DNA of 54,616 nucleotides. Origin: an uncultured Erysipelotrichaceae bacterium (lineage in GTDB: Bacteria > Bacillota_I > Bacilli_A > RF39 > UBA660). Positions 17,022 through 28,462 of this stretch are shown one piece after another (position 1 is the first letter of the stretch; every line of letters begins with the position of its first letter). A program made the translations under genes and the position numbers. The notes beneath the pieces were generated by a model that did no database searches, was not told where the DNA came from, and saw only the letters and a program-made list of their open reading frames with translations. Where the stretch lies: contig CACYWH010000003.1 of NCBI GenBank assembly GCA_902778125.1, positions 1 through 54,616 of the forward strand, written 5' to 3'.

Positions 17022-18920
<1,899 letters not shown>

Positions 18921-18927
18921 TCGAAGG

Positions 18928-18996
18928 CTCTAAGAAATTAGCCCACGGACTAATTGTATGCTCTGCGTACAATTATCCTAGGGGGTTAGAGTTTTT
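18928..18996 (+). other. structured intergenic element, candidate oriT and terminator
   Basis: An outer stem CTCTAA (18928-18933) / TTAGAG (18986-18991) with trailing Ts encloses two alternative hairpins: ATTAG/CTAAT around 18937-18954 and a 10-bp stem AATTGTATGC/GCGTACAATT (18952-18974). A CCTAGG palindrome follows. MobV relaxases commonly act on an inverted repeat just upstream of their own gene, so this may be the transfer origin, combined with a terminator for the recombinase. The nick site is not identified. Confidence 0.5.
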
Positions 18997-19036
18997 GACA
19001 ATAATAAATTATTCAAAAAAAGAGAGGGGATTTTAT

Positions 19037-20425
19037 ATGAGTGATTTATCTTATTCTTTACATTTAGGAAGTGATAAGAATAGAAAAAATATTTCTAGAT
19101 CAAATAATAATTTAAGTAATACTACATCATTATCAAATAATGCTATTCAAAATAAAAGACAACTATCAAAAGTGGATAATCATAATGCAAGAAAGTATGA
19201 TAATGATACAGATAAAATATCTATTTTAAAAGGAACTGATTCAGTATATAATGATGTTGAAAAATTATATAAAGATATATTTGATAAATCTAGAATAGAA
19301 TATAATAAAAAACAAACAAGACCAAGTAGAATGATAGATAATTATTTTGATAAGATATCTAATGATGAAAAAAGAGACCTTGCTTGTGAAATAATAATTG
19401 AACTTGGAGATAAAGATTTTTGGGAAGATAAAGATATTTTTTATAAAGCAAAAATGGAAGAAGTATTTAAAAAGCAAATATCTGATTTAGAAAATTTAGT
19501 TCCTAATTTTAAAATAGCAAATGCAATAGTTCATTATGATGAGACTAGTCCACATTTACATATAGTTGGAGTTCCAATTAAAGAAGGAAATAAAAATGGT
19601 ATGTCACTTCAAGTTGGTAAATCTGATGTATTTACAAAAGAGTCATTAGCTGATATTCAATTGAATATGAGAGACTTGTGTATCCAAAAATTTAATGAAG
19701 TGTATCAAACTAATTATGAGTTAAAAGAAAAAGTATTAGGAAGAAATAAAGATATACATGTTATGGATATGGAAGACTATAAAGAAACTATGAAAGAAAT
19801 AGAAACAAATAGAAATAGTATTAAAAAGACAACTGATTCCATAAATGAAATTAAAGAAAAATCAAAAGAAATAAAAAACATATTAGAAAGTTTAGATTCT
19901 AATTTATTAAATTATAAACTATCTAAAAGAGATAAATATAAAATAGAAAAGTATGTCAATGAAATGAATAAGTTAAATGAACAATATGAAGAATTATTTA
20001 AAATATCTTCATCTATTCAAGCAATTAAAAGTAATAATGAAGAATTAAAGTCTAGTTATAAGCATGAAAAGTCTCAAAGAACAGTTTTAACAAGTCAATT
20101 AATGAGTTTGCATGATAGAGTTAGTAATGAAAATAATAAAAATGCAATATTAGAATATAAACTTGAAGAAGCAAAAGATAATAAATTGTTATTTCTTAAA
20201 TCTTTAAGCGAAGCAATACACAATAATCCAAAAGATAGGTTTCCTAAAGAATTTGCTAAAAAATTATATGAGAAAAGAGTATTAAACAGATCAGAATATA
20301 GATGTGTTATTGATACTAACTTATCATTTTTCAATCCCAGTGAAGTAGAAGCAGTATTACATAAATTAAATCAAGAAGCAGAACAAGCATCAGAAGATTT
20401 TTATAATATGCATAGTGATTTTTAA
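19037..20425 (+). CDS. MobV family relaxase (Pre/Mob)
   Basis: This 462-residue plasmid recombination/mobilization enzyme would nick the transfer origin and lead the strand into a recipient. ATG 19037 is chosen for the AGAGAGGGGA site before it. The N-terminal part has KVDNHNARKYDN, matching the MobV first motif, and residues 166-175 are HYDETSPHLH, the metal-binding HxDxxxPHxH-type signature. The C-terminal half (about 260-400) is a long coiled coil. It follows the serine recombinase, as tnpZ follows tnpX in Tn4451. Confidence 0.92.
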   Translation: MSDLSYSLHLGSDKNRKNISRSNNNLSNTTSLSNNAIQNKRQLSKVDNHNARKYDNDTDKISILKGTDSVYNDVEKLYKDIFDKSRIEYNKKQTRPSRMIDNYFDKISNDEKRDLACEIIIELGDKDFWEDKDIFYKAKMEEVFKKQISDLENLVPNFKIANAIVHYDETSPHLHIVGVPIKEGNKNGMSLQVGKSDVFTKESLADIQLNMRDLCIQKFNEVYQTNYELKEKVLGRNKDIHVMDMEDYKETMKEIETNRNSIKKTTDSINEIKEKSKEIKNILESLDSNLLNYKLSKRDKYKIEKYVNEMNKLNEQYEELFKISSSIQAIKSNNEELKSSYKHEKSQRTVLTSQLMSLHDRVSNENNKNAILEYKLEEAKDNKLLFLKSLSEAIHNNPKDRFPKEFAKKLYEKRVLNRSEYRCVIDTNLSFFNPSEVEAVLHKLNQEAEQASEDFYNMHSDF

Positions 20426-20443
20426 AAGAAAAATTCAAATAGC

Positions 20444-20472
20444 TTGCAAATAACAAATTATTAATATATAAT
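20444..20472 (+). promoter_or_regulatory. shared-type promoter of the 20497 gene
   Basis: TTGCAA (20444-20449), 17 bases, TATAAT (20467-20472), followed by ATTAGGACATAAGGGAGG. The -10 plus leader closely matches that of the minus-strand genes starting at 24395, 25725 and 26268, and less closely the one at 27075. Confidence 0.8.
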
Positions 20473-20496
20473 ATTAGGACATAAGGGAGGCTATTT

Positions 20497-21135
20497 ATGA
20501 GTGAAATGTATTCAAAGGCAGAAGACTGCAGTTTATTAGCAGCTAAATTAAAGGATAAAATAGGATATAAAATAGTTTTTTATGGTTATACCAATACACC
20601 ACTACCAAGTGGTAAGTATTTATCATCATATAGGATTAATAATGGGGAACAAATGTTTAATGGACAATGCTTACCATTCTATTTTAAGTATTCTAAAAAT
20701 GAGTTTTTAAGAATTAGTGTTGGTTGTAATCATTTTGGAAGTTCTCTTGGGGAAAAATTAGCTGCTTTAAGCGACTTCTATGAAATATTGAGTGAGGAGT
20801 ACGGAGAACCCGATGTATTCTATACTACTAAAGAAGATGATGAAGGATTGCTAACATTACAATGGTCTTTTATAAATAAAGAGGAAGAAATAGAAAAATT
20901 TAAAAGTGGAAAATATTTTGATGATGCTGAAGTAAATAAATTAATAATATTTGGCGAAAAGAGAAACGGTGAAGAAAATAACTTGAGTGATAAAACAAAA
21001 AGAATTATTTCTAAAAGAATGGGATTACCATTTGAATTAATATATTTAGTAGATGAAAATTTCATTAAACATAAGAGTGGAGAAGATTTGCACTTAGCAT
21101 TTGATAATCCAAAAACTTTAAAACTTAATAATTAA
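20497..21135 (+). CDS. hypothetical orphan protein 1 (accessory)
   Basis: This 212-residue soluble protein has no recognised family. It has a strand-rich central part (about 30-125) with a run FLRISVGCNHFGSSLGEK, and a helical, charged C-terminus. No signal peptide or membrane helix is seen. It follows mobV by 71 bases with its own promoter and GGGAGG site. Its promoter and 5' leader are shared with four minus-strand orphan genes, suggesting common regulation or common descent of the flanks. Confidence 0.7.
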   Translation: MSEMYSKAEDCSLLAAKLKDKIGYKIVFYGYTNTPLPSGKYLSSYRINNGEQMFNGQCLPFYFKYSKNEFLRISVGCNHFGSSLGEKLAALSDFYEILSEEYGEPDVFYTTKEDDEGLLTLQWSFINKEEEIEKFKSGKYFDDAEVNKLIIFGEKRNGEENNLSDKTKRIISKRMGLPFELIYLVDENFIKHKSGEDLHLAFDNPKTLKLNN

Positions 21136-21148
21136 TTGGCATACATAA

Positions 21149-21211
21149 ACTATGGCTTTTTAAATGGTTACTATGACTTTTTAAATGGTTACTATGACTT
21201 TTTAAATGGGG
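21149..21211 (+). repeat. three tandem 21-bp direct repeats
   Basis: ACTATGGCTTTTTAAATGGTT at 21149 is followed by two further copies at 21170 and 21191, differing at one internal base and at the final two. The 21-bp period equals two helical turns. The array ends eight bases before the -35 box of the next gene. Its core also matches 3' arms of terminators at 22930 (plus) and 25057 (minus). Confidence 0.9.
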
Positions 21212-21218
21212 TTAGTGA

Positions 21219-21247
21219 TTGACATAGTGTATCAATTGTGATACAAT
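21219..21247 (+). promoter_or_regulatory. strong promoter with overlapping operator-like palindrome
   Basis: TTGACA (21219-21224), 17 bases, TACAAT (21242-21247). A perfect inverted repeat TGTATCA-ATTG-TGATACA (21228-21245) fills the spacer and overlaps the -10, as expected for a repressor site. Confidence 0.8.
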
Positions 21248-21283
21248 ATGGTTGCATTTTAAAAAGAAGGGGGAATATTTAAA

Positions 21284-21925
21284 ATGGAAAATAAAGATTA
21301 TGAAATTTTAGAAATTGATAAGGGAGAAAGAATATTTAAAGCATTAAGAAGAGCTGCTATTGTTTGTAATAGTGTTTCATTGGCTTTAGGATTAGCAATT
21401 TGTGGGGCCAAGACTCTTCAAAAAAAGAATAATTCTAAAACTATTGAAAATGGTTATTTTAAGAATTATTATTTTAATGGTGGATATGTTATGGAAGGCA
21501 ATAAATATTATGTAAAGTCAACTATCTACACAGAACCTATTGCAATAACACAAGATGGTGAAACTAGACATTGTGCACCGGAAGGATTTGTTTTAGGTAA
21601 AGATGGACGTTGTTATAAAATTGAATATATTTCATATGCAGTTGCTCCGGATGGATACGTTTTGGATGAAGAAACTGGAAAATGTTGGAGTCTTGAAAAA
21701 TTAAATTTAGTTGAATCTACATATACACCAGAAGAAGGATATCATTTAGAACAATATGAAGAAGATGAAAATTATTCTTATGTGGTTCAAGATGGTTATC
21801 ATTTAGAATTATGTGAAGATGAGGGACCTGGTTTAAAACGAAATTATTTAATAAAAGATGGTTATCATTTAGAACATGGTGGTAAAATTGTAAAAGATGA
21901 GCTTCCAAAAGTTCTTAAAAAATAG
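21284..21925 (+). CDS. hypothetical repeat-containing membrane-anchored protein
   Basis: This 213-residue protein has a basic, amphipathic N-terminus and one hydrophobic segment (about 26-44, AAIVCNSVSLALGLAICGAK) that could anchor it. The rest contains short repeats: APEGFVLGKDGRCYK and APDGYVLDEETGKCW, then three GYHLE units (about 147, 167 and 189). The repeats suggest tandem beta hairpins. No family is recognised. Expression should be strong and regulated, given the consensus promoter, the overlapping palindrome and GAAGGGGG RBS. Confidence 0.65.
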   Translation: MENKDYEILEIDKGERIFKALRRAAIVCNSVSLALGLAICGAKTLQKKNNSKTIENGYFKNYYFNGGYVMEGNKYYVKSTIYTEPIAITQDGETRHCAPEGFVLGKDGRCYKIEYISYAVAPDGYVLDEETGKCWSLEKLNLVESTYTPEEGYHLEQYEEDENYSYVVQDGYHLELCEDEGPGLKRNYLIKDGYHLEHGGKIVKDELPKVLKK

Positions 21926-21948
21926 CAAATAAGAAGGGAAAAATTAAA

Positions 21949-22203
21949 ATAAAATTTACAAATGAACAAATAATAGATATTCAAAATACATGCAAAGAAG
22001 TATGCAAAGGAAATTTATCAGTAGAAGAAGGAAACACATATTTAAAAAAATATGGCTTAGAAAATTCTGCATACTCTAAAGATGGAAAACCAATATTAAA
22101 GTTCTCGAATGGTGAAAATTTAAGATTTGGTGAATTATTATGTTCTCAATGCTATATCGAATATATTAAAGAAGATGACACTAGAAATAAGTGGAGAAGA
22201 TAA
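21949..22203 (+). pseudogene. 84-codon ORF lacking a start codon
   Basis: A coding-looking frame runs from ATA (21949) to TAA (22203) and contains no in-frame ATG, GTG or TTG. AAGAAGGG lies ten bases before the ATA, where a start would be expected, so the ATA may be a mutated ATG; an in-frame ATT at 21943 is only four bases from it. The product would begin IKFTNEQIIDIQNTC, with a C-x3-C pair near the start and LLCSQC near residue 66. No family is recognised. Confidence 0.5.
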
Positions 22204-22335
22204 TTAAAATTATATTGCAAAATAAAAGCTATAGATTAAAACAAACTTATGACTTTAAATGTTAAAACACTATATAAATGGTGACTTTTTATAACAATAT
22301 AATGAAATATATATTTAATTAGGAGGTGTATTTGT

Positions 22336-22899
22336 ATGTATGTATATCTTATATATGAACAAATATTTTGGGAAATGAAAGATGTTGTAGAAAGATATCG
22401 AAAAGGAGAAAATCTTGATTTTTCTGAAATGAATAGTGTCATGGAACGTTTGATACATGGAGCAGAATCTCATAAGGAAATGATTACTGATAAAAGAAAA
22501 ATCGGAGATAAAGAATTTTATGATATGCTAAGAGAATTTGCATATATAACATGGTCTGAAATTGATAGTTTGAGAGTTTTAGAAACTGTTCCAATCAAGG
22601 TGGAAAAAAATCGTGATTTAATATGTAATGAACATAACTTTGTTGACGAAAGTGGAAAATATTTTAAATATGCACTTAAATACATTAAAAAATTTGTTGT
22701 CTCAAACGGCATACTTGAGGATCTTTTTGACGATAATTTAGATAATATTAATATACAAGTAGAGAACGCCACTGTTCCAGGATATGAAGGAAGTAAGAAC
22801 GAATGGGATCTTGTTTCTCAAGAATATGCAAAAGAGTTTGAAGAACGTGGATTTGCAAGAAGATTAAAGCAGTTAAATGATACTAAATTTGGAAAATAA
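22336..22899 (+). CDS. hypothetical orphan protein 2 (accessory)
   Basis: This 187-residue, mostly helical, charged soluble protein has no recognised family. ATG 22336 follows TTAGGAGGTG at ideal spacing. A TATAAT lies near 22300 with no clear -35. There is no signal peptide. It ends at its own terminator (22906-22941), so it is a single-gene unit. Confidence 0.65.
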   Translation: MYVYLIYEQIFWEMKDVVERYRKGENLDFSEMNSVMERLIHGAESHKEMITDKRKIGDKEFYDMLREFAYITWSEIDSLRVLETVPIKVEKNRDLICNEHNFVDESGKYFKYALKYIKKFVVSNGILEDLFDDNLDNINIQVENATVPGYEGSKNEWDLVSQEYAKEFEERGFARRLKQLNDTKFGK

Positions 22900-22905
22900 A
22901 TAATT

Positions 22906-22941
22906 AGTCATAGCTTAAATGAAATGAAACTATGGCTTTTT
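22906..22941 (+). terminator. terminator of the 22336 gene
   Basis: AGTCATAG (22906-22913) pairs with CTATGGCT (22930-22937) with one wobble, then Ts. The 3' arm AAACTATGGCTTTTTAAAT also occurs at 21148 and, inverted, near 25057. Confidence 0.75.
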
Positions 22942-22962
22942 AAATAATTTAAAAATTTGATT

Positions 22963-22991
22963 TTGCAAAGTCAAAAAAAATATGGTAATAT
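22963..22991 (+). promoter_or_regulatory. promoter of the putative ncRNA at 22998
   Basis: TTGCAA (22963-22968), 17 bases, TAATAT (22986-22991) with TGG before it. Confidence 0.55.
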
Positions 22992-22997
22992 TAATTT

Positions 22998-23102
22998 AGT
23001 TAGTAATATATTACTACTATTTTAAAGCATTATCTTGTTGCTCTACACAATTAAGATACGTGCCAGTAGAATATTTACTCTAACTTTTTAGTTAGAGTTT
23101 TT
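22998..23102 (+). ncRNA. putative small RNA, copy 1 of a two-member family
   Basis: A unit of about 105 nt with its own promoter and a clear terminator ACTCTAAC/GTTAGAGT (23077-23098) plus Ts. The preceding gene already has a terminator. It shares blocks with the unit at 27204-27310: TTGCTC, then 15-16 bases, CGTGCC, then GAATATT and ACTC at the hairpin base. No coding potential or known RNA family is recognised. It directly precedes the HAD gene. Confidence 0.5.
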
Positions 23103-23108
23103 ATATTG

Positions 23109-23117
23109 TGCTATAAT
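23109..23117 (+). promoter_or_regulatory. extended -10 promoter of the HAD gene
   Basis: TGCTATAAT (23109-23117) lies 28 bases before the ATG with no good -35. Confidence 0.6.
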
Positions 23118-23145
23118 TGATGTGTAAGATTAGGTTGTGGTTATA

Positions 23146-23676
23146 ATGAATGTGATTTTTTTAGATATTGATGGTGTTTTACAACCTTTTAATTCTAAAA
23201 ATAGATTTTTGCATAGAGATAGAGATTTAATTAAGATTTTATCAAATGCTTATAATGTAGATTATTCTATTTATGATTATTATGATGTTGCTGCAGTATA
23301 TTACGATTGGGATGAACAAGCAGTTTATAGATTAAAATATATACTAAATGAAACTAATTCAAAAATAATAGTATCTTGTAATTGGAGAAGCAATAAGTTT
23401 CCAAATAAGATGAAAGATTTATTAACAATTCAGGGGCTAGATAATTATTGGTTTACTGATAATGTCATATTACATAGACAACAATTGTACGATACTCTAC
23501 AAATAATAAGATTTAGAGAAATATGTGATTCATTAAATAAATATGACATTGATAACTTTGTGGTATTAGATGACTGGAAGGAAATGGTAGAATTCTTCCC
23601 TAATCATTCAGTTATTACTCATAATGTTATAAGTGATGATAATATGACTAAATGTATTAGAATTTTAAAAAGATAA
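23146..23676 (+). CDS. HAD superfamily protein (RNA-repair-associated HAD type)
   Basis: This 176-residue hydrolase-fold protein begins NVIFLDIDGVL with nucleophile Asp7 and general acid Asp9. Motif II is IIVSCNWRS and the acidic motif IV is FVVLDDWKE. It resembles the short HAD domains found as parts or partners of Swiss-army-knife RNA repair proteins, which act as phosphatases. An in-frame GTG at 23137 is possible, but ATG 23146 is better placed after AGGT. It stands alone behind the ncRNA unit. Confidence 0.75.
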   Translation: MNVIFLDIDGVLQPFNSKNRFLHRDRDLIKILSNAYNVDYSIYDYYDVAAVYYDWDEQAVYRLKYILNETNSKIIVSCNWRSNKFPNKMKDLLTIQGLDNYWFTDNVILHRQQLYDTLQIIRFREICDSLNKYDIDNFVVLDDWKEMVEFFPNHSVITHNVISDDNMTKCIRILKR

Positions 23677-23694
23677 ATATTGAAATAATTTAAT

Positions 23695-23727
23695 AAAAGA
23701 TATTGGTTTGTGAATCAATATCTTTTA
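23695..23727. terminator. bidirectional terminator
   Basis: AAAAGATATTG / CAATATCTTTT between the convergent HAD gene and the minus-strand orphan gene. Confidence 0.75.
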
Positions 23728-23759
23728 ATTGTTTTTATTTTTAAACTATGGTTAATAAA

Positions 23760-24395
23760 TTATTTTTTTAAAGATAAAACATTCACTGACTTTGGCTCTT
23801 TTAAATATTCTTTAACAGCGACTAAATTGAATTTAAAACATCCTAGTGTTTCTTTATATAATTCTTTTAATCCTTCATAATCATATTCTTTTCCTTCATT
23901 AATTGAATCATGTTTTCTTAATTCAGGTGAATCTGCATAGCTTAATAATCCATTCAATACTAATTGATCAGACTTACTATAATTATAAATAGCATTATCA
24001 CGTTCAAGTCCAACAGATTCTGAATTTTTTCTGAATGTTGGATAATCATTATTTAAGATTGTTTCTATGTATGAATATAAATCGGGAAGTTTAGTATATG
24101 AATAATTATATGTAACATAATCACAACCATTTTCAGTATGATGTACTATAGTTTCTGGATATAGTGTTGCATTTTCATATCTAAAACTTATGACTTTATA
24201 AAAGAAAGAAGCAACTCTTTTTTTAATAATTTTTTCTGTAGCAGGCCAATTAGTTATATCTCCCGCTATTTGAGCCTGACTAATTTTAACATATTCATAT
24301 TTTTTTAATTTTTTTAGTATTTCCTTTAACATTTCTCTGTCATAATCAACGGAATAAAATTCTTCGCCGTTTTCATTTTTTTGAATAAAATTCAT
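23760..24395 (-). CDS. hypothetical orphan protein 3 (accessory)
   Basis: This 211-residue soluble protein of unknown family has a helical, Lys/Glu-rich N-terminus (ILKKLKKYEYVKISQAQIAG), an aromatic middle and a C-terminal tail AVKEYLKEPKSVNVLSLKK. The DNA for that tail plus its 3' flank is duplicated downstream of the next-but-one gene at 25104-25146. GGAGGG precedes the ATG. Promoter and leader match those of four other genes here. Confidence 0.7.
   Translation of the reverse strand: MNFIQKNENGEEFYSVDYDREMLKEILKKLKKYEYVKISQAQIAGDITNWPATEKIIKKRVASFFYKVISFRYENATLYPETIVHHTENGCDYVTYNYSYTKLPDLYSYIETILNNDYPTFRKNSESVGLERDNAIYNYSKSDQLVLNGLLSYADSPELRKHDSINEGKEYDYEGLKELYKETLGCFKFNLVAVKEYLKEPKSVNVLSLKK
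23773..23815. repeat. duplicated 3' tail, copy A
   Basis: 43 bases inside the 3' end of the 23760-24395 gene match 25104-25146 at 40 positions by eye, in the same orientation. Weaker similarity extends leftward past both stops. Confidence 0.85.
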
Positions 24396-24417
24396 AAACC
24401 CTCCATTATGTCTTAAT

Positions 24418-24446
24418 ATTATACATACTAATTATTTCCATTTCAA
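24418..24446 (-). promoter_or_regulatory. shared-type promoter of the 24395 gene
   Basis: On the minus strand TTGAAA, 17 bases, TATAAT, then ATTAAGACATAATGGAGG. GAAATATAAC precedes the -35, as it does at 27129. Confidence 0.8.
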
Positions 24447-24500
24447 GTTATATTTCAAAAGAAGATATTGGTTTTTATAGCTAATATCCTTTGTTAATTA

Positions 24501-24989
24501 TTAAAATCTCTTAACTTTTATTTTCCTAGATGAATTATTACATAGATTTATTTTTTCAAGAGTTGTTGATGGAATTCTTCCACAACTATTAATATGACTA
24601 ATTACTTGTCTCACTTGCCTTAAAGCTTTTTTATTTTTTAAATCTGAAAGGTATACGGACATATCTTTTATAATTGGAATCCAAAGAGTTTTACATTGAA
24701 CTTTTACATATTCATAAGCCGTTAAATATACTATTGCATAACTATAATTTTTTAAACTAATATTCTGAGTTTTTATAGTATCAATATAATAATCATATTT
24801 TTTTCCATTAATATGATAGTTTTCTATAGATTCTTCCTTTTGTTCTCCATCTACTCCCACTAAGCCATCAGTAATCATTTTTGTTTCAATTAGGGGAATT
24901 TCTATAGTTTCTCCATCAGGTGTATTAACATGCTTTGAAACTTTAATAATTTCAATATTCCCGTTATTGTTTAATACTTTAATTTTCAT
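24501..24989 (-). CDS. hypothetical orphan protein 4 (accessory)
   Basis: This 162-residue protein has no recognised family. The N-terminal third is strand-rich with acidic turns (NTPDGETIEIPLIETK). The middle is hydrophobic-aromatic (SYAIVYLTAYEYVKV), and the C-terminus is basic (RKIKVKRF). GAGGAGC precedes the ATG. Unlike its neighbours it has a different, stronger promoter, so it may have a separate origin. Confidence 0.65.
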   Translation of the reverse strand: MKIKVLNNNGNIEIIKVSKHVNTPDGETIEIPLIETKMITDGLVGVDGEQKEESIENYHINGKKYDYYIDTIKTQNISLKNYSYAIVYLTAYEYVKVQCKTLWIPIIKDMSVYLSDLKNKKALRQVRQVISHINSCGRIPSTTLEKINLCNNSSRKIKVKRF

Positions 24990-25018
24990 AATTGCTCCTC
25001 ATAAATAAATTGTTCTTT

Positions 25019-25047
25019 ATTGTATAATAATCATTAATAAAAGTCAA
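25019..25047 (-). promoter_or_regulatory. promoter of the 24989 gene
   Basis: On the minus strand TTGACT (25047-25042), 17 bases, TACAAT (25024-25019). Confidence 0.75.
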
Positions 25048-25050
25048 TTT

Positions 25051-25082
25051 AAAAAAGCCATAGTTTTATTTTAAACTATAGC
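25051..25082 (-). terminator. terminator downstream of the 25725 gene
   Basis: On the minus strand GCTATAGTTT / AAACTATGGC, then six Ts. The 3' arm belongs to the repeated family also seen at 21148 and 22928. Confidence 0.75.
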
Positions 25083-25103
25083 CCAAATAATTTATTTTTT
25101 TAT

Positions 25104-25146
25104 GATAAAACAATCACTAACTCTGGCTCTTTTAAATATTCTTTAA
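25104..25146. repeat. duplicated 3' tail, copy B
   Basis: Matches 23773-23815 at 40 of 43 positions by eye. Here the tail is mostly beyond the stop of the resident gene and in another frame, where it would read TIKEYLKEPELVIVLS. Confidence 0.85.
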
Positions 25147-25725
25147 TGGTTGTTTTATTAGTTTTTTTTGATATGGTTTATCTCGCCACATTTCTTCTGG
25201 CATATATTTAATACTTGAAGGTCTAGCAAACTTTATTTCAATCATATTCCCTAGCATAACATAATTATGTGAAAGTACATATCCCAATCCTGTTTTTTTT
25301 AAACTATAATCTACCTCTTTACAACTTCTTTCGGGATATTGCCCAATGCAAATAGAGCCTAAAGTTCTTTTCTTATTTTTTTCTAAATTTATAATATCAT
25401 TAGAATTATTAGGACTTAGAGTTATTGAAAAAATTACTCTGTCAACCCCATTAGTAGTTTGCATCTTAAAAATGTATAAATCTCTACACATTATATAAAA
25501 CTTATAATAAATTGTTGGATTGACTTCACTCTGTATATTATAAAAAGGATCTTGCTTATCATCTAAACCCCAATTATTATTAGTTCCTTTAATATAAGTG
25601 GTTTGAATATTATTTAATAATTCCTCAGGCAACTCTTTTATAAAATTAATAGTTTTTCCCAAATATAGATTCTTAACTTTTAACATATACCACAGTGATA
25701 AATCATATTCTTTTCCGAATATCAT
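25132..25725 (-). CDS. hypothetical orphan protein 5, 3' end probably frameshifted
   Basis: This 197-residue protein of unknown family starts MIFGKEYDLSLWYML after GAGAGGGG. It is rich in aromatic residues, with several strand-like stretches and no membrane helix. Its last codons lie in copy B of the duplicated tail but in a different frame. A one- or two-base shift near 25150-25165 would extend it with KEYLKEPELVIVLS, like the C-terminus of the 23760-24395 protein. It may therefore be a frameshifted relative or a recombinant. Confidence 0.65.
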   Translation of the reverse strand: MIFGKEYDLSLWYMLKVKNLYLGKTINFIKELPEELLNNIQTTYIKGTNNNWGLDDKQDPFYNIQSEVNPTIYYKFYIMCRDLYIFKMQTTNGVDRVIFSITLSPNNSNDIINLEKNKKRTLGSICIGQYPERSCKEVDYSLKKTGLGYVLSHNYVMLGNMIEIKFARPSSIKYMPEEMWRDKPYQKKLIKQPLKNI

Positions 25726-25749
25726 ACAAGCCCCTCTCTATGCTCTAAT

Positions 25750-25778
25750 ATTATAATCAATTATTATTCTATTTTCTA
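25750..25778 (-). promoter_or_regulatory. shared-type promoter of the 25725 gene
   Basis: On the minus strand TAGAAA, 17 bases, TATAAT, then ATTAGAGCATAGAGAGGGG. The spacer is nearly the same as that of the 27075 promoter. Confidence 0.75.
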
Positions 25779-25818
25779 GTTATATCACAAAAGGAAAAAA
25801 TATAGCTTTTAATATTAT

Positions 25819-26268
25819 CTATCTTTTTCTAATTCTTTTTAAATGTTCACTAACTTTTCTTTCTTCTTTAATATCCATTATCTTAGTTTTTTTATTAAGA
25901 TAAACATCTAGCATTAATTCTTGATTTGGCATTTCTCTTTTTGCTTGAAATCTGCTGTTATCTCCAGCCAAAGTTAAAATTATATCACCCTGGGTAATAA
26001 CTATTACAGAATTTTTCATTTTTGCCCATTCGGAACAAACATATACTGCATTCCAATGCTTGAAATCACGTTCATAATAAATTTGGCAATTTTGAGTTTT
26101 AATATTTCCAACAAAAGTTTCATCATTAAGATGTTTTTGTTCAATATCTTTATTAATTAATTCAACTATCATTTGAATATCTAATCCTTCAAAAAATTGT
26201 AATAGTCTATTTTGTACACTGCTACTAGTGATGATGGACTGATTAAAATATTCACTATTATTTAACAT
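25819..26268 (-). CDS. hypothetical orphan protein 6 (accessory)
   Basis: This 149-residue soluble protein has no recognised family. A helical N-terminus (RLLQFFEGLDIQMIVELINK) is followed by a strand-rich part containing HWNAVYVCSEWAKMKNSVIV and DIILTLAGDNSRF. The C-terminus is highly basic (EHLKRIRKR). GGAGAGG precedes the ATG. It is a single-gene unit in the minus-strand series. Confidence 0.65.
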   Translation of the reverse strand: MLNNSEYFNQSIITSSSVQNRLLQFFEGLDIQMIVELINKDIEQKHLNDETFVGNIKTQNCQIYYERDFKHWNAVYVCSEWAKMKNSVIVITQGDIILTLAGDNSRFQAKREMPNQELMLDVYLNKKTKIMDIKEERKVSEHLKRIRKR

Positions 26269-26291
26269 ATATTTCCTCTCCGTGTATTAAT

Positions 26292-26320
26292 ATTATACAT
26301 TAACTATTTATTCATTTCTA
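26292..26320 (-). promoter_or_regulatory. shared-type promoter of the 26268 gene
   Basis: On the minus strand TAGAAA, 17 bases, TATAAT followed by ATTA and a GGAGAGG leader. Confidence 0.65.
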
Positions 26321-26355
26321 TAATTATCTTTTTTAATTCATATATTAGTTCATTA

Positions 26356-27075
26356 TTATTTCTTATATATTTTTTGATATACATTCCAAGTATGCTCTGG
26401 CGTCATATATTTCACATCATGTTCTTTTTGATAATAAGCCAAGCTGTAGATTAATTCTTTAATATATTCTTTGCTGTTAGGATAACTAAAAACTACTCCA
26501 TCATTATAAATTAAATATGCATAATCTGTAAGTTTTTCACTTCCAATGCCTTTTTTCCAAGTAACTGGAATATTTGTAGGACACCCACGTAAAATCATAG
26601 AATCACTATACTCGATGATGATTTTGTTATCACCTTTTGCTTTATATGGATTGTTCACTTCATTTCCTTGAGCAATTACAAGAACAGGTTTTTCAATATG
26701 TTGAGGACAAATATATGTGTCACTAGGATCAGTATACTCTTGAACTCCTCTTTTAGATGCAAAATCTTCATTGTCATATTTTTTTATTAAATCGCAGATT
26801 ATTTTCCCAACCATATCAACATTTAAACATGAATAACCAAATAAAATATGTTTATTTCTCTTCTCAGGATTAGGTGGAATATTTGTTAATAATGCAAATT
26901 CTTCTCTTTTAGTAGAAAAATATTCTTTATAAAGTTTTAACTTTAATATCTCCAATTGCCTATTTTTCTCACCTGCTTGTATCTTTTTTTTCTTAATTTC
27001 TTCACTTATTTCTTTTATATCTTTTTCCAAAAGTAAAATTCTACTTCTTTTATCATTTAAAGAATCTTCAGTCAT
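26356..27075 (-). CDS. hypothetical orphan protein 7 with N-terminal coiled coil
   Basis: In this 239-residue protein, residues 8-52 are a heptad-like, Lys/Glu-rich coiled coil (RSRILLLEKDIKEISEEIKK). The remainder is a mixed domain with CPQHIEKPVLVIAQGNEVN and SDSMILRGCPTNIPVTW. No catalytic motif is recognised. It starts after AAAGGAGAG. It is the first of the minus-strand series, divergent from the two RNA units. Confidence 0.65.
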   Translation of the reverse strand: MTEDSLNDKRSRILLLEKDIKEISEEIKKKKIQAGEKNRQLEILKLKLYKEYFSTKREEFALLTNIPPNPEKRNKHILFGYSCLNVDMVGKIICDLIKKYDNEDFASKRGVQEYTDPSDTYICPQHIEKPVLVIAQGNEVNNPYKAKGDNKIIIEYSDSMILRGCPTNIPVTWKKGIGSEKLTDYAYLIYNDGVVFSYPNSKEYIKELIYSLAYYQKEHDVKYMTPEHTWNVYQKIYKK

Positions 27076-27100
27076 TATAACTCTCCTTTCATGACTTTAT

Positions 27101-27129
27101 ATTATAATTAATTATTATTTTATTTTCAA
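27101..27129 (-). promoter_or_regulatory. shared-type promoter of the 27075 gene
   Basis: On the minus strand TTGAAA, 17 bases, TATAAT, preceded by GAAATATAAC. Confidence 0.8.
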
Positions 27130-27169
27130 GTTATATTTCATAATTTGAATGATTGCTTTATAAATGATT

Positions 27170-27197
27170 TTGACTTTTTAAACTTTTGTGTTATACT
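27170..27197 (+). promoter_or_regulatory. promoter of the putative ncRNA at 27204
   Basis: TTGACT (27170-27175), 16 bases, TATACT (27192-27197) with TGT before it (extended -10). Confidence 0.7.
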
Positions 27198-27203
27198 CAA
27201 TAT

Positions 27204-27310
27204 GTAACTTAGCTTTATCTCAGTTCTCATTTACATAAGTTTTTGCTCATACGAGTAGTAAACGCGTGCCATAATGAATATTACTCGAACTATTATAGTT
27301 TGAGTTTTTT
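27204..27310 (+). ncRNA. putative small RNA, copy 2 of a two-member family
   Basis: A unit of about 107 nt in a divergent gap, so its terminator serves no upstream gene. The promoter is good, and the terminator is ACTCGAACTA/TAGTTTGAGT (27283-27305) plus Ts. It shares TTGCTC, CGTGCC, GAATATT and the hairpin base with 22998-23102. CGAGTA (27252-27257) can pair with TACTCG (27282-27287), which would compete with the terminator. No known family is recognised. Confidence 0.6.
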
Positions 27311-27320
27311 ATTTAAATGC

Positions 27321-27349
27321 TTTACAAACATATTTTTGTGTTATATAAT
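27321..27349 (+). promoter_or_regulatory. promoter of the putative ncRNA at 27356
   Basis: TTTACA (27321-27326), 17 bases, TATAAT (27344-27349). Confidence 0.75.
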
Positions 27350-27355
27350 TAATTT

Positions 27356-27476
27356 GTAATAATTACTTGCCAAGTGTTATTATGACAATTTGTTCGACTA
27401 GGGTTTTCTATTTAAGGCAAGATAAATAGATTGCATGCATGCGGAGATATACTTTTTTAAGTATGTCTCCTTTTTT
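27356..27476 (+). ncRNA. putative structured small RNA or leader before the Fic gene
   Basis: A unit of about 121 nt with a consensus promoter. A closing stem CTTGCC (27366-27371) / GGCAAG (27416-27421) is followed by a 12-bp terminator GGAGATATACTT/AAGTATGTCTCC (27443-27470) plus six Ts. The Fic gene starts 45 bases later. It could be an independent RNA or an attenuating leader. Confidence 0.6.
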
Positions 27477-27520
27477 GTTACAGGTAATTATTAAAGGATA
27501 ACAATAAAAGGAGTTATGTT

Positions 27521-28462
27521 ATTAAAAATGAAATTGTTATTTTTGAAAATCAAAATGTTAGATTGAAGGTGAATTTAAAGGATGAGACAGTATGGTTATC
27601 TTTAGATCAAATGTCTGAATTATTTGGTAGAGATAAATCAGTTATTTCAAGACATATTAAAAATGCTTTATCTGAAGAAGTTGATAATTCAACTGTTGCA
27701 TTTTTTGCAACAGTTCAAAAAGAAGGTCAAAGACAAATAAAACGTAATATTGAATATTATAATTTAGATATGATTATTTCAGTTGGATATCGAGTTAAAT
27801 CTAAAAATGGTATTATTTTTAGAAAATGGGCAAGTAGTATATTAAAAGATTATATGTTAAAAGGTGTAGCTATTAATAATAAAAGGTTAGAGTTTTTAGA
27901 AAAGAGTGTAAAACTAATTGAAATAGCTAATCGTGGAACTAATAGAATAAGTGACTCTGAGGCAAAAGACATATTAAATATAATAGGAGAATATACTAAA
28001 TCTTTAGATTTACTTGATGATTATGATCATAGAACTTTAGCTAAAGTTAAAGGTAATAAAGATAGTAGAATTATTACATATAATGAATGTTTAAAGTTGA
28101 TTTCTAAACTAAAATTTAATAATGATAGCAATATATTTGGAGTAGAAAGAAATCATGGATTAGAATCTATTATAAATGATATATATTTAACATTTGATGG
28201 TAAAGATGTATACGATAGTATAGAGTTAAAAGCTTGTAATTTCTTATATACTTTAATTAAAAATCATCCATTTGTTGATGGTAATAAAAGAATAGCTGCA
28301 ACACTATTTATATATTTTTTGAATTTTTATGGATTATTATACAAAAATGAAAAGCAAATAATTGATAATAATACACTTACTGCTATGACTCTTTTAATAG
28401 CAGAATCTAATCCAAAAGAAAAAGAAATAATTGTAGATTTAGTTATGAACTTTTTAAATTAA
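27521..28462 (+). CDS. RhuM - Fic domain protein
   Basis: The N-terminal half is a RhuM (virulence protein/phage antirepressor-like) domain with VWLSLDQMSELFGRDKSVIS and DMIISVGYRVKSKNGIIFRKW. The C-terminal half is a Fic/Doc fold with active-site loop HPFVDGNKR, predicted to transfer AMP or another phosphate group to a target. The homologous frame continues upstream of TTG 27563 (IKNEIVIFENQNVR) to ATT 27521, which has AAAGGAG seven bases before it. There is no ATG in frame, so ATT initiation, weak TTG initiation or inactivation are all possible. Full-length relatives usually start with this strand. Confidence 0.82.
   Translation: MKNEIVIFENQNVRLKVNLKDETVWLSLDQMSELFGRDKSVISRHIKNALSEEVDNSTVAFFATVQKEGQRQIKRNIEYYNLDMIISVGYRVKSKNGIIFRKWASSILKDYMLKGVAINNKRLEFLEKSVKLIEIANRGTNRISDSEAKDILNIIGEYTKSLDLLDDYDHRTLAKVKGNKDSRIITYNECLKLISKLKFNNDSNIFGVERNHGLESIINDIYLTFDGKDVYDSIELKACNFLYTLIKNHPFVDGNKRIAATLFIYFLNFYGLLYKNEKQIIDNNTLTAMTLLIAESNPKEKEIIVDLVMNFLN

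What the first reader, a model, noticed from the sequence alone, without database searches (positions are those of the whole stretch)
20444..27129. Five unrelated orphan genes share one promoter-plus-leader cassette
The genes beginning at 20497 (+), 24395, 25725, 26268 and 27075 (all -) each have a -35 of TTGAAA, TTGCAA or TAGAAA, exactly 17 bases, TATAATAT(T/A)A, and a GGAG-type site close behind. GACATAA or a near variant occurs in the leader of most. GAAATATAAC precedes two of the -35 boxes. Their proteins show no obvious mutual similarity. Conserved flanks around variable coding sequence suggest cassette exchange or co-regulated orphan immunity/defence-type genes (inference).
Basis: partly seen in the sequence, partly recalled or inferred. 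Interest (0 to 1): 0.72.

Follow-up and report, generated by a model that had tools for sequence, protein, structure and literature searches.

The report
Reusable promoter unit with swappable genes
A roughly 70-base switch-on signal (promoter plus ribosome-binding leader) is repeated in front of many unrelated small genes on accessory DNA islands of a few gut-type bacteria, and comparison of related islands shows genes being swapped in and out behind it like cassettes in a player.

Summary
All five genes carry a sigma-A-type promoter (17-base spacer) and leader of shared sequence. The combined motif is absent from the rest of this genome and from nearly all relatives searched, but recurs in three other MAGs from two other genera: about 25 clear sites in four genomes, before some 19 unrelated small-gene families. 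Similarity across 22 units is confined to about -20 to +55 around the -35 box and drops to shuffled background on both sides. Two intrinsic-terminator sequences recur at the boundaries. Closely related contigs show coding sequences exchanged between conserved flanks. One window unit (g27075 with its promoter) is 98.9% identical in another genus, in a different context, although thrS there is only about 79% identical. In the window, g25725 sits between such a unit and the leftover 3' end of a g24395-like gene. Best reading: islands of self-contained expression units whose repeated boundaries give both expression and short homology for gene replacement. Nothing supports immunity or defence function. 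Closest analogues are mycobacteriophage SAS/ESAS elements, Bacteroidales rAID arrays and phage morons: a new variant of a known kind. The recombination mechanism is inferred, not shown.

The parts
20424..20496 (+). repeated unit 1: promoter (-35 at 20444) and leader/RBS
   Evidence: 85% over 67 nt to the unit at L022:9458
20497..21135 (+). orphan CDS g20497 (212 aa)
   Evidence: no family match
24396..24466 (-). repeated unit 2: promoter (-35 at 24446) and leader/RBS
23760..24395 (-). orphan CDS g24395 (211 aa); relatives at L020:11116-11733 and L021:15686-16324, both behind such a unit
24462..24491 (-). class A terminator-like hairpin upstream of unit 2 (degraded stem)
23696..23727 (.). class A bidirectional terminator-like hairpin between g23137 and g24395
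   Evidence: z-score -6.9; same stem recurs in L021, L068, L070, L071
25726..25798 (-). repeated unit 3: promoter (-35 at 25778) and leader/RBS
25132..25725 (-). orphan CDS g25725 (197 aa); its last codons are read out of frame from the leftover tail below
25064..25146 (-). leftover 3' end plus 3' UTR of a second g24395-like gene, behind g25725
   Evidence: 86% to 23733-23815; also similar to L020 11665-11876
25057..25084 (-). class B terminator-like hairpin
   Evidence: z-score -5.1; same stem recurs in L020, L068, L070, L072
26269..26334 (-). repeated unit 4: promoter (-35 at 26320) and leader/RBS, the weakest copy
25819..26268 (-). orphan CDS g26268 (149 aa)
   Evidence: no family match above cut-off
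27076..27143 (-). repeated unit 5: promoter (-35 at 27129) and leader/RBS
26356..27075 (-). orphan CDS g27075 (239 aa); with its unit 98.9% identical to G728 contig C47 (L069:1-753)
24501..24989 (-). orphan CDS g24989 in the same block, without the unit
17040..18920 (+). large serine recombinase (context: integrated element)
   Evidence: Pfam Resolvase and Recombinase
18995..20425 (+). Mob_Pre relaxase-like gene (context: mobilizable element)
   Evidence: Pfam Mob_Pre E 2.5e-11

Best explanation
The region belongs to an accessory island that carries unrelated small genes, many of them as self-contained expression units: a sigma-A-type promoter (TTGAAA-17-TATAATATTA), a very short conserved leader with ribosome-binding site (AAGACATAAGGGAGG), one coding sequence, and often one of two recurring intrinsic terminators. 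The repeated boundary does two jobs. It makes whatever coding sequence follows it expressed, probably constitutively (inferred from sequence). And, because it is repeated at many gene boundaries, it offers short homology at which coding sequences, or promoter plus coding sequence, are replaced by homologous or homology-assisted recombination (inferred from comparisons). Shown: the shared unit, its sharp limits, its patchy distribution, exchanged coding sequences between conserved flanks, and recent spread of one unit between genera. Not shown: promoter activity, the recombination pathway, any benefit of the genes.
For: Identity across 22 units is 0.65-0.71 from the -35 box through the leader and at shuffled background (0.30-0.35) outside about -20 to +60. 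23 strong-site genes fall into 19 families. G144: a DUF3658 gene plus promoter-leader are 85% identical in two copies up to the start codon, the next genes are unrelated, and similarity resumes at the following gene. G728 vs G729: 97-99% identical flanks enclose different genes; identity stops in the leader after GACATA and resumes at the class B terminator. g27075 with its unit: 98.9% over 753 nt between this window and G728 with different upstream DNA, while thrS is about 79% identical in nt. In the window, g25725 lies between a unit and the leftover tail of a g24395-like gene. Breakpoints fall at several places of the unit (terminator, just before the promoter, leader), as expected of homology rather than one fixed site. 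Unit absent from the rest of G000 and from congeners.
Against: Few informative near-identical pairs; all genomes are MAGs and contigs break or can be misbinned at repeats (L069 ends inside g27075). No recombination genes of a suitable kind were identified in the islands beyond the serine recombinases. The leader is conserved more than a plain promoter needs, which could mean selection for regulation. Some array genes lack the unit (g24989, L071:9924, L072:7873).
Confidence: 0.65

Rival explanations
1. Regulon: the conserved stretch contains a binding site for one regulator (or an RNA or translation factor), and selection keeps unrelated genes under common control; gene swaps are incidental.
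For: The spacer and the leader between -10 and the RBS are conserved beyond what a sigma-A promoter needs. Mycobacteriophage SAS/ESAS elements, similar in layout, are read as regulatory.
Against: The same gene families occur with and without the unit (families 4, 25, 29). Recurrence of the same terminator stems, which need no particular sequence, points to shared DNA rather than to an operator. No regulator gene was identified.
Confidence: 0.3
2. Site-specific cassette system: an undescribed recombinase recognises the leader or the terminator hairpin, like an integron integrase at attC.
For: Hairpins sit at gene ends and units are repeated at boundaries; serine recombinases lie on three of the islands.
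Against: Breakpoints are not at one base. The serine recombinase is missing between ligA and the array in G729. No attC-like core or integron integrase was recognised.
Confidence: 0.12
3. Plain tandem duplication followed by divergence of the coding sequences beyond recognition.
For: Units within one genome are alike (win-24446 and win-27129, 80%), and the leftover tail shows a former duplicate of g24395.
Against: Flanks of 97-99% identity enclose unrelated genes in G728 and G729, too recent for divergence; a 98.9% identical unit sits in a different context in another genus.
Confidence: 0.08
4. The genes form an array of orphan immunity or anti-phage defence genes, like rAID.
For: Short orphan genes with conserved intergenic motifs, as in rAID; a RhuM-Fic gene with candidate-defence PADLOC hits lies next door.
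Against: No immunity or defence family hit for any of the five proteins; array genes elsewhere include HD and DUF3658 proteins; no tyrosine recombinase recognised.
Confidence: 0.15

Closest known systems
[quoted passage not shown]
   Same: A repeated SigA-like promoter with 17-18 base spacer and a conserved leader/RBS just before the start codons of many different gene families.
   Different: Those lie in phage genomes, have a 17-base inverted repeat around the promoter, and stay with the same gene family across genomes; here the units lie in bacterial islands, no such inverted repeat was noted, and gene families are found with different units or none.
rAID systems of Bacteroidales (PMC12247911)
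   Same: Arrays of short (about 100-300 codon) orphan genes with conserved intergenic motifs on mobile DNA.
   Different: rAID is defined by a tyrosine recombinase, co-oriented genes and immunity proteins; here serine recombinases are on some islands only, orientation is mixed, and no immunity relation was found.
Phage morons (from general knowledge)
   Same: Autonomous extra genes with their own promoter and terminator.
   Different: Here one promoter-leader sequence is shared by many units, in arrays, with no phage genes seen in the sequences read.
Integron gene-cassette arrays (from general knowledge)
   Same: Arrays of varied accessory genes exchanged as units, with a hairpin at the gene end.
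   Different: Units here carry their own promoter; no integron integrase or attC core was recognised; breakpoints vary.

Membership tests
SAS/ESAS elements | conserved leader including the RBS within a few bases of the start codon, before different gene families | tested here: met
   same leader before 19 families
SAS/ESAS elements | SAS consensus GGGATAGGAGCCC and 17-base imperfect inverted repeat | tested here: not met
   the consensus here is AAGACATAAGGGAGG, a different sequence; no 17-base inverted repeat was seen around the promoter in the aligned units
SAS/ESAS elements | stable association of a gene family with its element | tested here: not met
   families 4, 25 and 29 occur with and without the unit
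rAID | conserved intergenic motifs between short orphan genes | tested here: met
rAID | tyrosine recombinase heading the array | tested here: inconclusive
   the recombinase found is a serine recombinase (Pfam, by similarity in L020 and L068); not every array neighbour was scanned against Pfam
rAID | genes encode T6SS immunity proteins | tested here: inconclusive
   no immunity family match, but remote relatives could be missed
integron cassette array | integron integrase and attC sites | tested here: inconclusive
   none recognised by Pfam in the window genes scanned; no dedicated attC search was run
integrative mobilizable element | integrase plus relaxase on one element | tested here: met
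   serine recombinase 17040 and Mob_Pre 18995
integrative mobilizable element | defined ends with att repeats and an empty site in relatives | tested here: inconclusive
   thrS of three of the four congeners compared has different upstream DNA; ends not determined

The most novel reading that the evidence does not exclude
The terminator-promoter-leader repeat is a general exchange boundary: a promoter-bearing gene-cassette system of low-GC gut bacteria that shuffles arbitrary genes, and perhaps noncoding RNA units, through repeated expression boundaries without an integron-type recombinase.
Probability: 0.35. Interest if true: 0.8.

Novelty: new variant of a known kind. Interest (0 to 1): 0.6.

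Why it matters
If true, it shows a simple way for a bacterium to make acquired genes both expressed at once and easily replaceable: the gene boundary is itself the promoter and the recombination homology. It would make the old linker idea of modular exchange testable on near-identical natural contigs, and gives one profile with which to find fast-moving orphan genes in uncultured gut bacteria, where such genes have no other annotation.

Tried and rejected
Phage or plasmid origin: no match of the promoter patterns, or of g24395 and g27075, in viral contigs; no phage match for g24395; no plasmid match for the 20497 unit. Widespread motif: 386 family and 395 class genomes scanned, only G000 and G144 with several strong copies; the 15 other genomes of the G728/G729 genus negative. 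L049 (RUG12933) matched the pattern but scores weakly and was set aside as probable chance. Structure: g24395 model of moderate quality (pTM 0.62), no PDB match with E <= 0.001; g20497 model unusable. RNA families in 20380-27600: none at E <= 5. Empty site of the window island not obtained; the region next to ligA, where the G728/G729 array sits, is variable in relatives. Weak hits (MC4, AAC(6'), p6, Cas6) lie far below cut-offs and were set aside. g25725 as a frameshifted copy of g24395: rejected, the proteins are unrelated apart from the leftover tail.

Full report
WHAT WAS CHECKED. The window is contig C3 of a 1.27 Mb assembly; the window is 25% GC. A sequence-only model of 12 units (R1) finds exactly five sites at E <= 0.1 in this genome, all here. 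A profile built without window sites recovers four of the five at E 5e-10 to 1.5e-5, and the fifth, before g26268, only marginally at 0.086. The promoter part alone is unremarkable genome-wide (2 exact hits against 1 for the reversed control); with the leader it is specific.

WHERE ELSE IT OCCURS. A pattern scan of one genome for each of 84,980 species and model scans place several copies of the unit in three other MAGs: G144 (CAMVPB01; 10 sites at E <= 1e-3), G728 (RGIG2715, goat omasum; 4 sites) and G729 (CAMUZE01; 6 sites). G000 and G144 are in different genera of one family; G728 and G729 share another genus. Scans of 386 family genomes and 395 class genomes gave no other genome with several strong copies, only single weaker matches (E about 6e-7 to 1e-4), and the 15 other genomes of the G728/G729 genus are negative. 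This patchy distribution fits accessory DNA. No exact match came from viral contigs, and one unit searched in plasmids found nothing.

ANATOMY. Across 22 units mean pairwise identity is at shuffled background up to about -20, is 0.65-0.71 from the -35 box through the leader, and is back at background by +60, just after the start codon. Consensus from the -35 box: TTGAAAatAAaAaAanaaTTatnTATAATATTAAGACATAagGGaGG. Many copies are preceded, or the genes followed, by one of two recurring intrinsic-terminator sequences: class A (AAGATATTG...CAATATCTTTTTCTTTT) and class B (CATAGTTT...AAACTATGGCTTTTTAAATG). The 23 strong-site genes fall into 19 protein families.

EVIDENCE OF EXCHANGE. In G144, two copies of a DUF3658 gene plus promoter-leader are 85% identical until the start codon; the next genes are unrelated; similarity resumes at the following gene. 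In G728 versus G729, flanks of 97-99% identity enclose different genes: identity runs through the promoter to GACATA in the leader, stops, and resumes at the class B terminator before the next unit. The unit of g27075 with its coding sequence is 98.9% identical over 753 bases between this window and G728, and the DNA upstream differs; thrS between G000 and these genomes is about 79% identical in nucleotides. In the window itself g25725 is preceded by a unit and followed by 83 bases that are 86% identical to the end of g24395; the last codons of g25725 are read from that leftover in another frame. The gene family of L022:9063 is followed by three different unit-driven genes in three contigs, and the g24395 family sits behind two promoter subtypes. 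Breakpoints lie in the terminator, just upstream of the promoter, or in the leader, which argues for homology rather than one fixed recombinase site.

INTERPRETATION. The most economical reading is that the repeated boundary both drives expression and supplies homology for gene replacement. Shown: the unit, its limits, its distribution and the exchanges. Inferred: promoter activity, the recombination pathway and any benefit. A regulon remains possible and would not exclude exchange. The immunity/defence idea has no positive evidence.

KNOWN SYSTEMS. SAS/ESAS elements of cluster K mycobacteriophages are the nearest structural analogue: a SigA-like promoter plus conserved leader before different gene families (PMC3203893; PMC11373665). 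They differ in sequence, carry an inverted repeat, and stay with their gene families. rAID arrays of Bacteroidales share short orphan genes and conserved intergenic motifs but are defined by a tyrosine recombinase (PMC12247911), not recognised here. Morons and integron cassettes are looser analogues, cited from general knowledge. I file it as a new variant of a known kind, not as a member of any of these.

LIMITS. All genomes are MAGs; assemblies may break or misplace repeated units (the L069 contig ends inside g27075). The informative pairs are few. There are no expression data. A shared C-terminal tendency of array proteins was noticed after the fact and needs an independent test.

Noticed in passing
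window 22948-23110 (+); L020:8917-9030; L021:5988-5830: Probable small-RNA gene with its own promoter, core ATCTTGTTGCTCTACACAATTAAGATACGTGC and a terminator in the window copy; 93% identical over 116 nt to G144. It lies between two genes that adjoin directly in G728 (L068:11600/11653), so it may move as a noncoding unit. No Rfam match.
   Followed up: partly
window 27180-27320 (+) and 27340-27480 (+); L070:12192-12357: Two further intergenic stretches with promoter-like and terminator-like ends between g27075 and the RhuM gene; the first is about 75% identical to a stretch at one end of the G729 array.
   Followed up: partly
array proteins in window 20497-27075, L020, L021, L068-L072: Unrelated array proteins share a weak C-terminal tendency such as ...KTLSLKPNN...RKLVPNKK...LVKRK: 132 similar tail pairs against 79 +- 10 in shuffles, none in excess in controls (pattern chosen after the fact). 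Either a shared 3' DNA flank or a C-terminal signal.
   Followed up: partly
window 27563-28462 (+): RhuM-Fic fusion-like protein with strong hits to PADLOC candidate families PDC-S23 and PDC-S05.
   Followed up: no
window 23137-23676 (+): HAD_SAK_2 family protein (RNA-repair-associated HAD domain), next to g22336 both here and in G728.
   Followed up: no
window 21147-21215 (+): Three tandem 21-base repeats (ACTATGACTTTTTAAATGGTT), decayed copies of the class B terminator's 3' arm.
   Followed up: no
L070:12320-14507 and L020:4631-6810: A LysR-like plus radical-SAM-like gene block is 97% identical between G729 and G144 beside the arrays, although thrS is only about 75% identical in nt: another recent transfer, or misbinning.
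   Followed up: no
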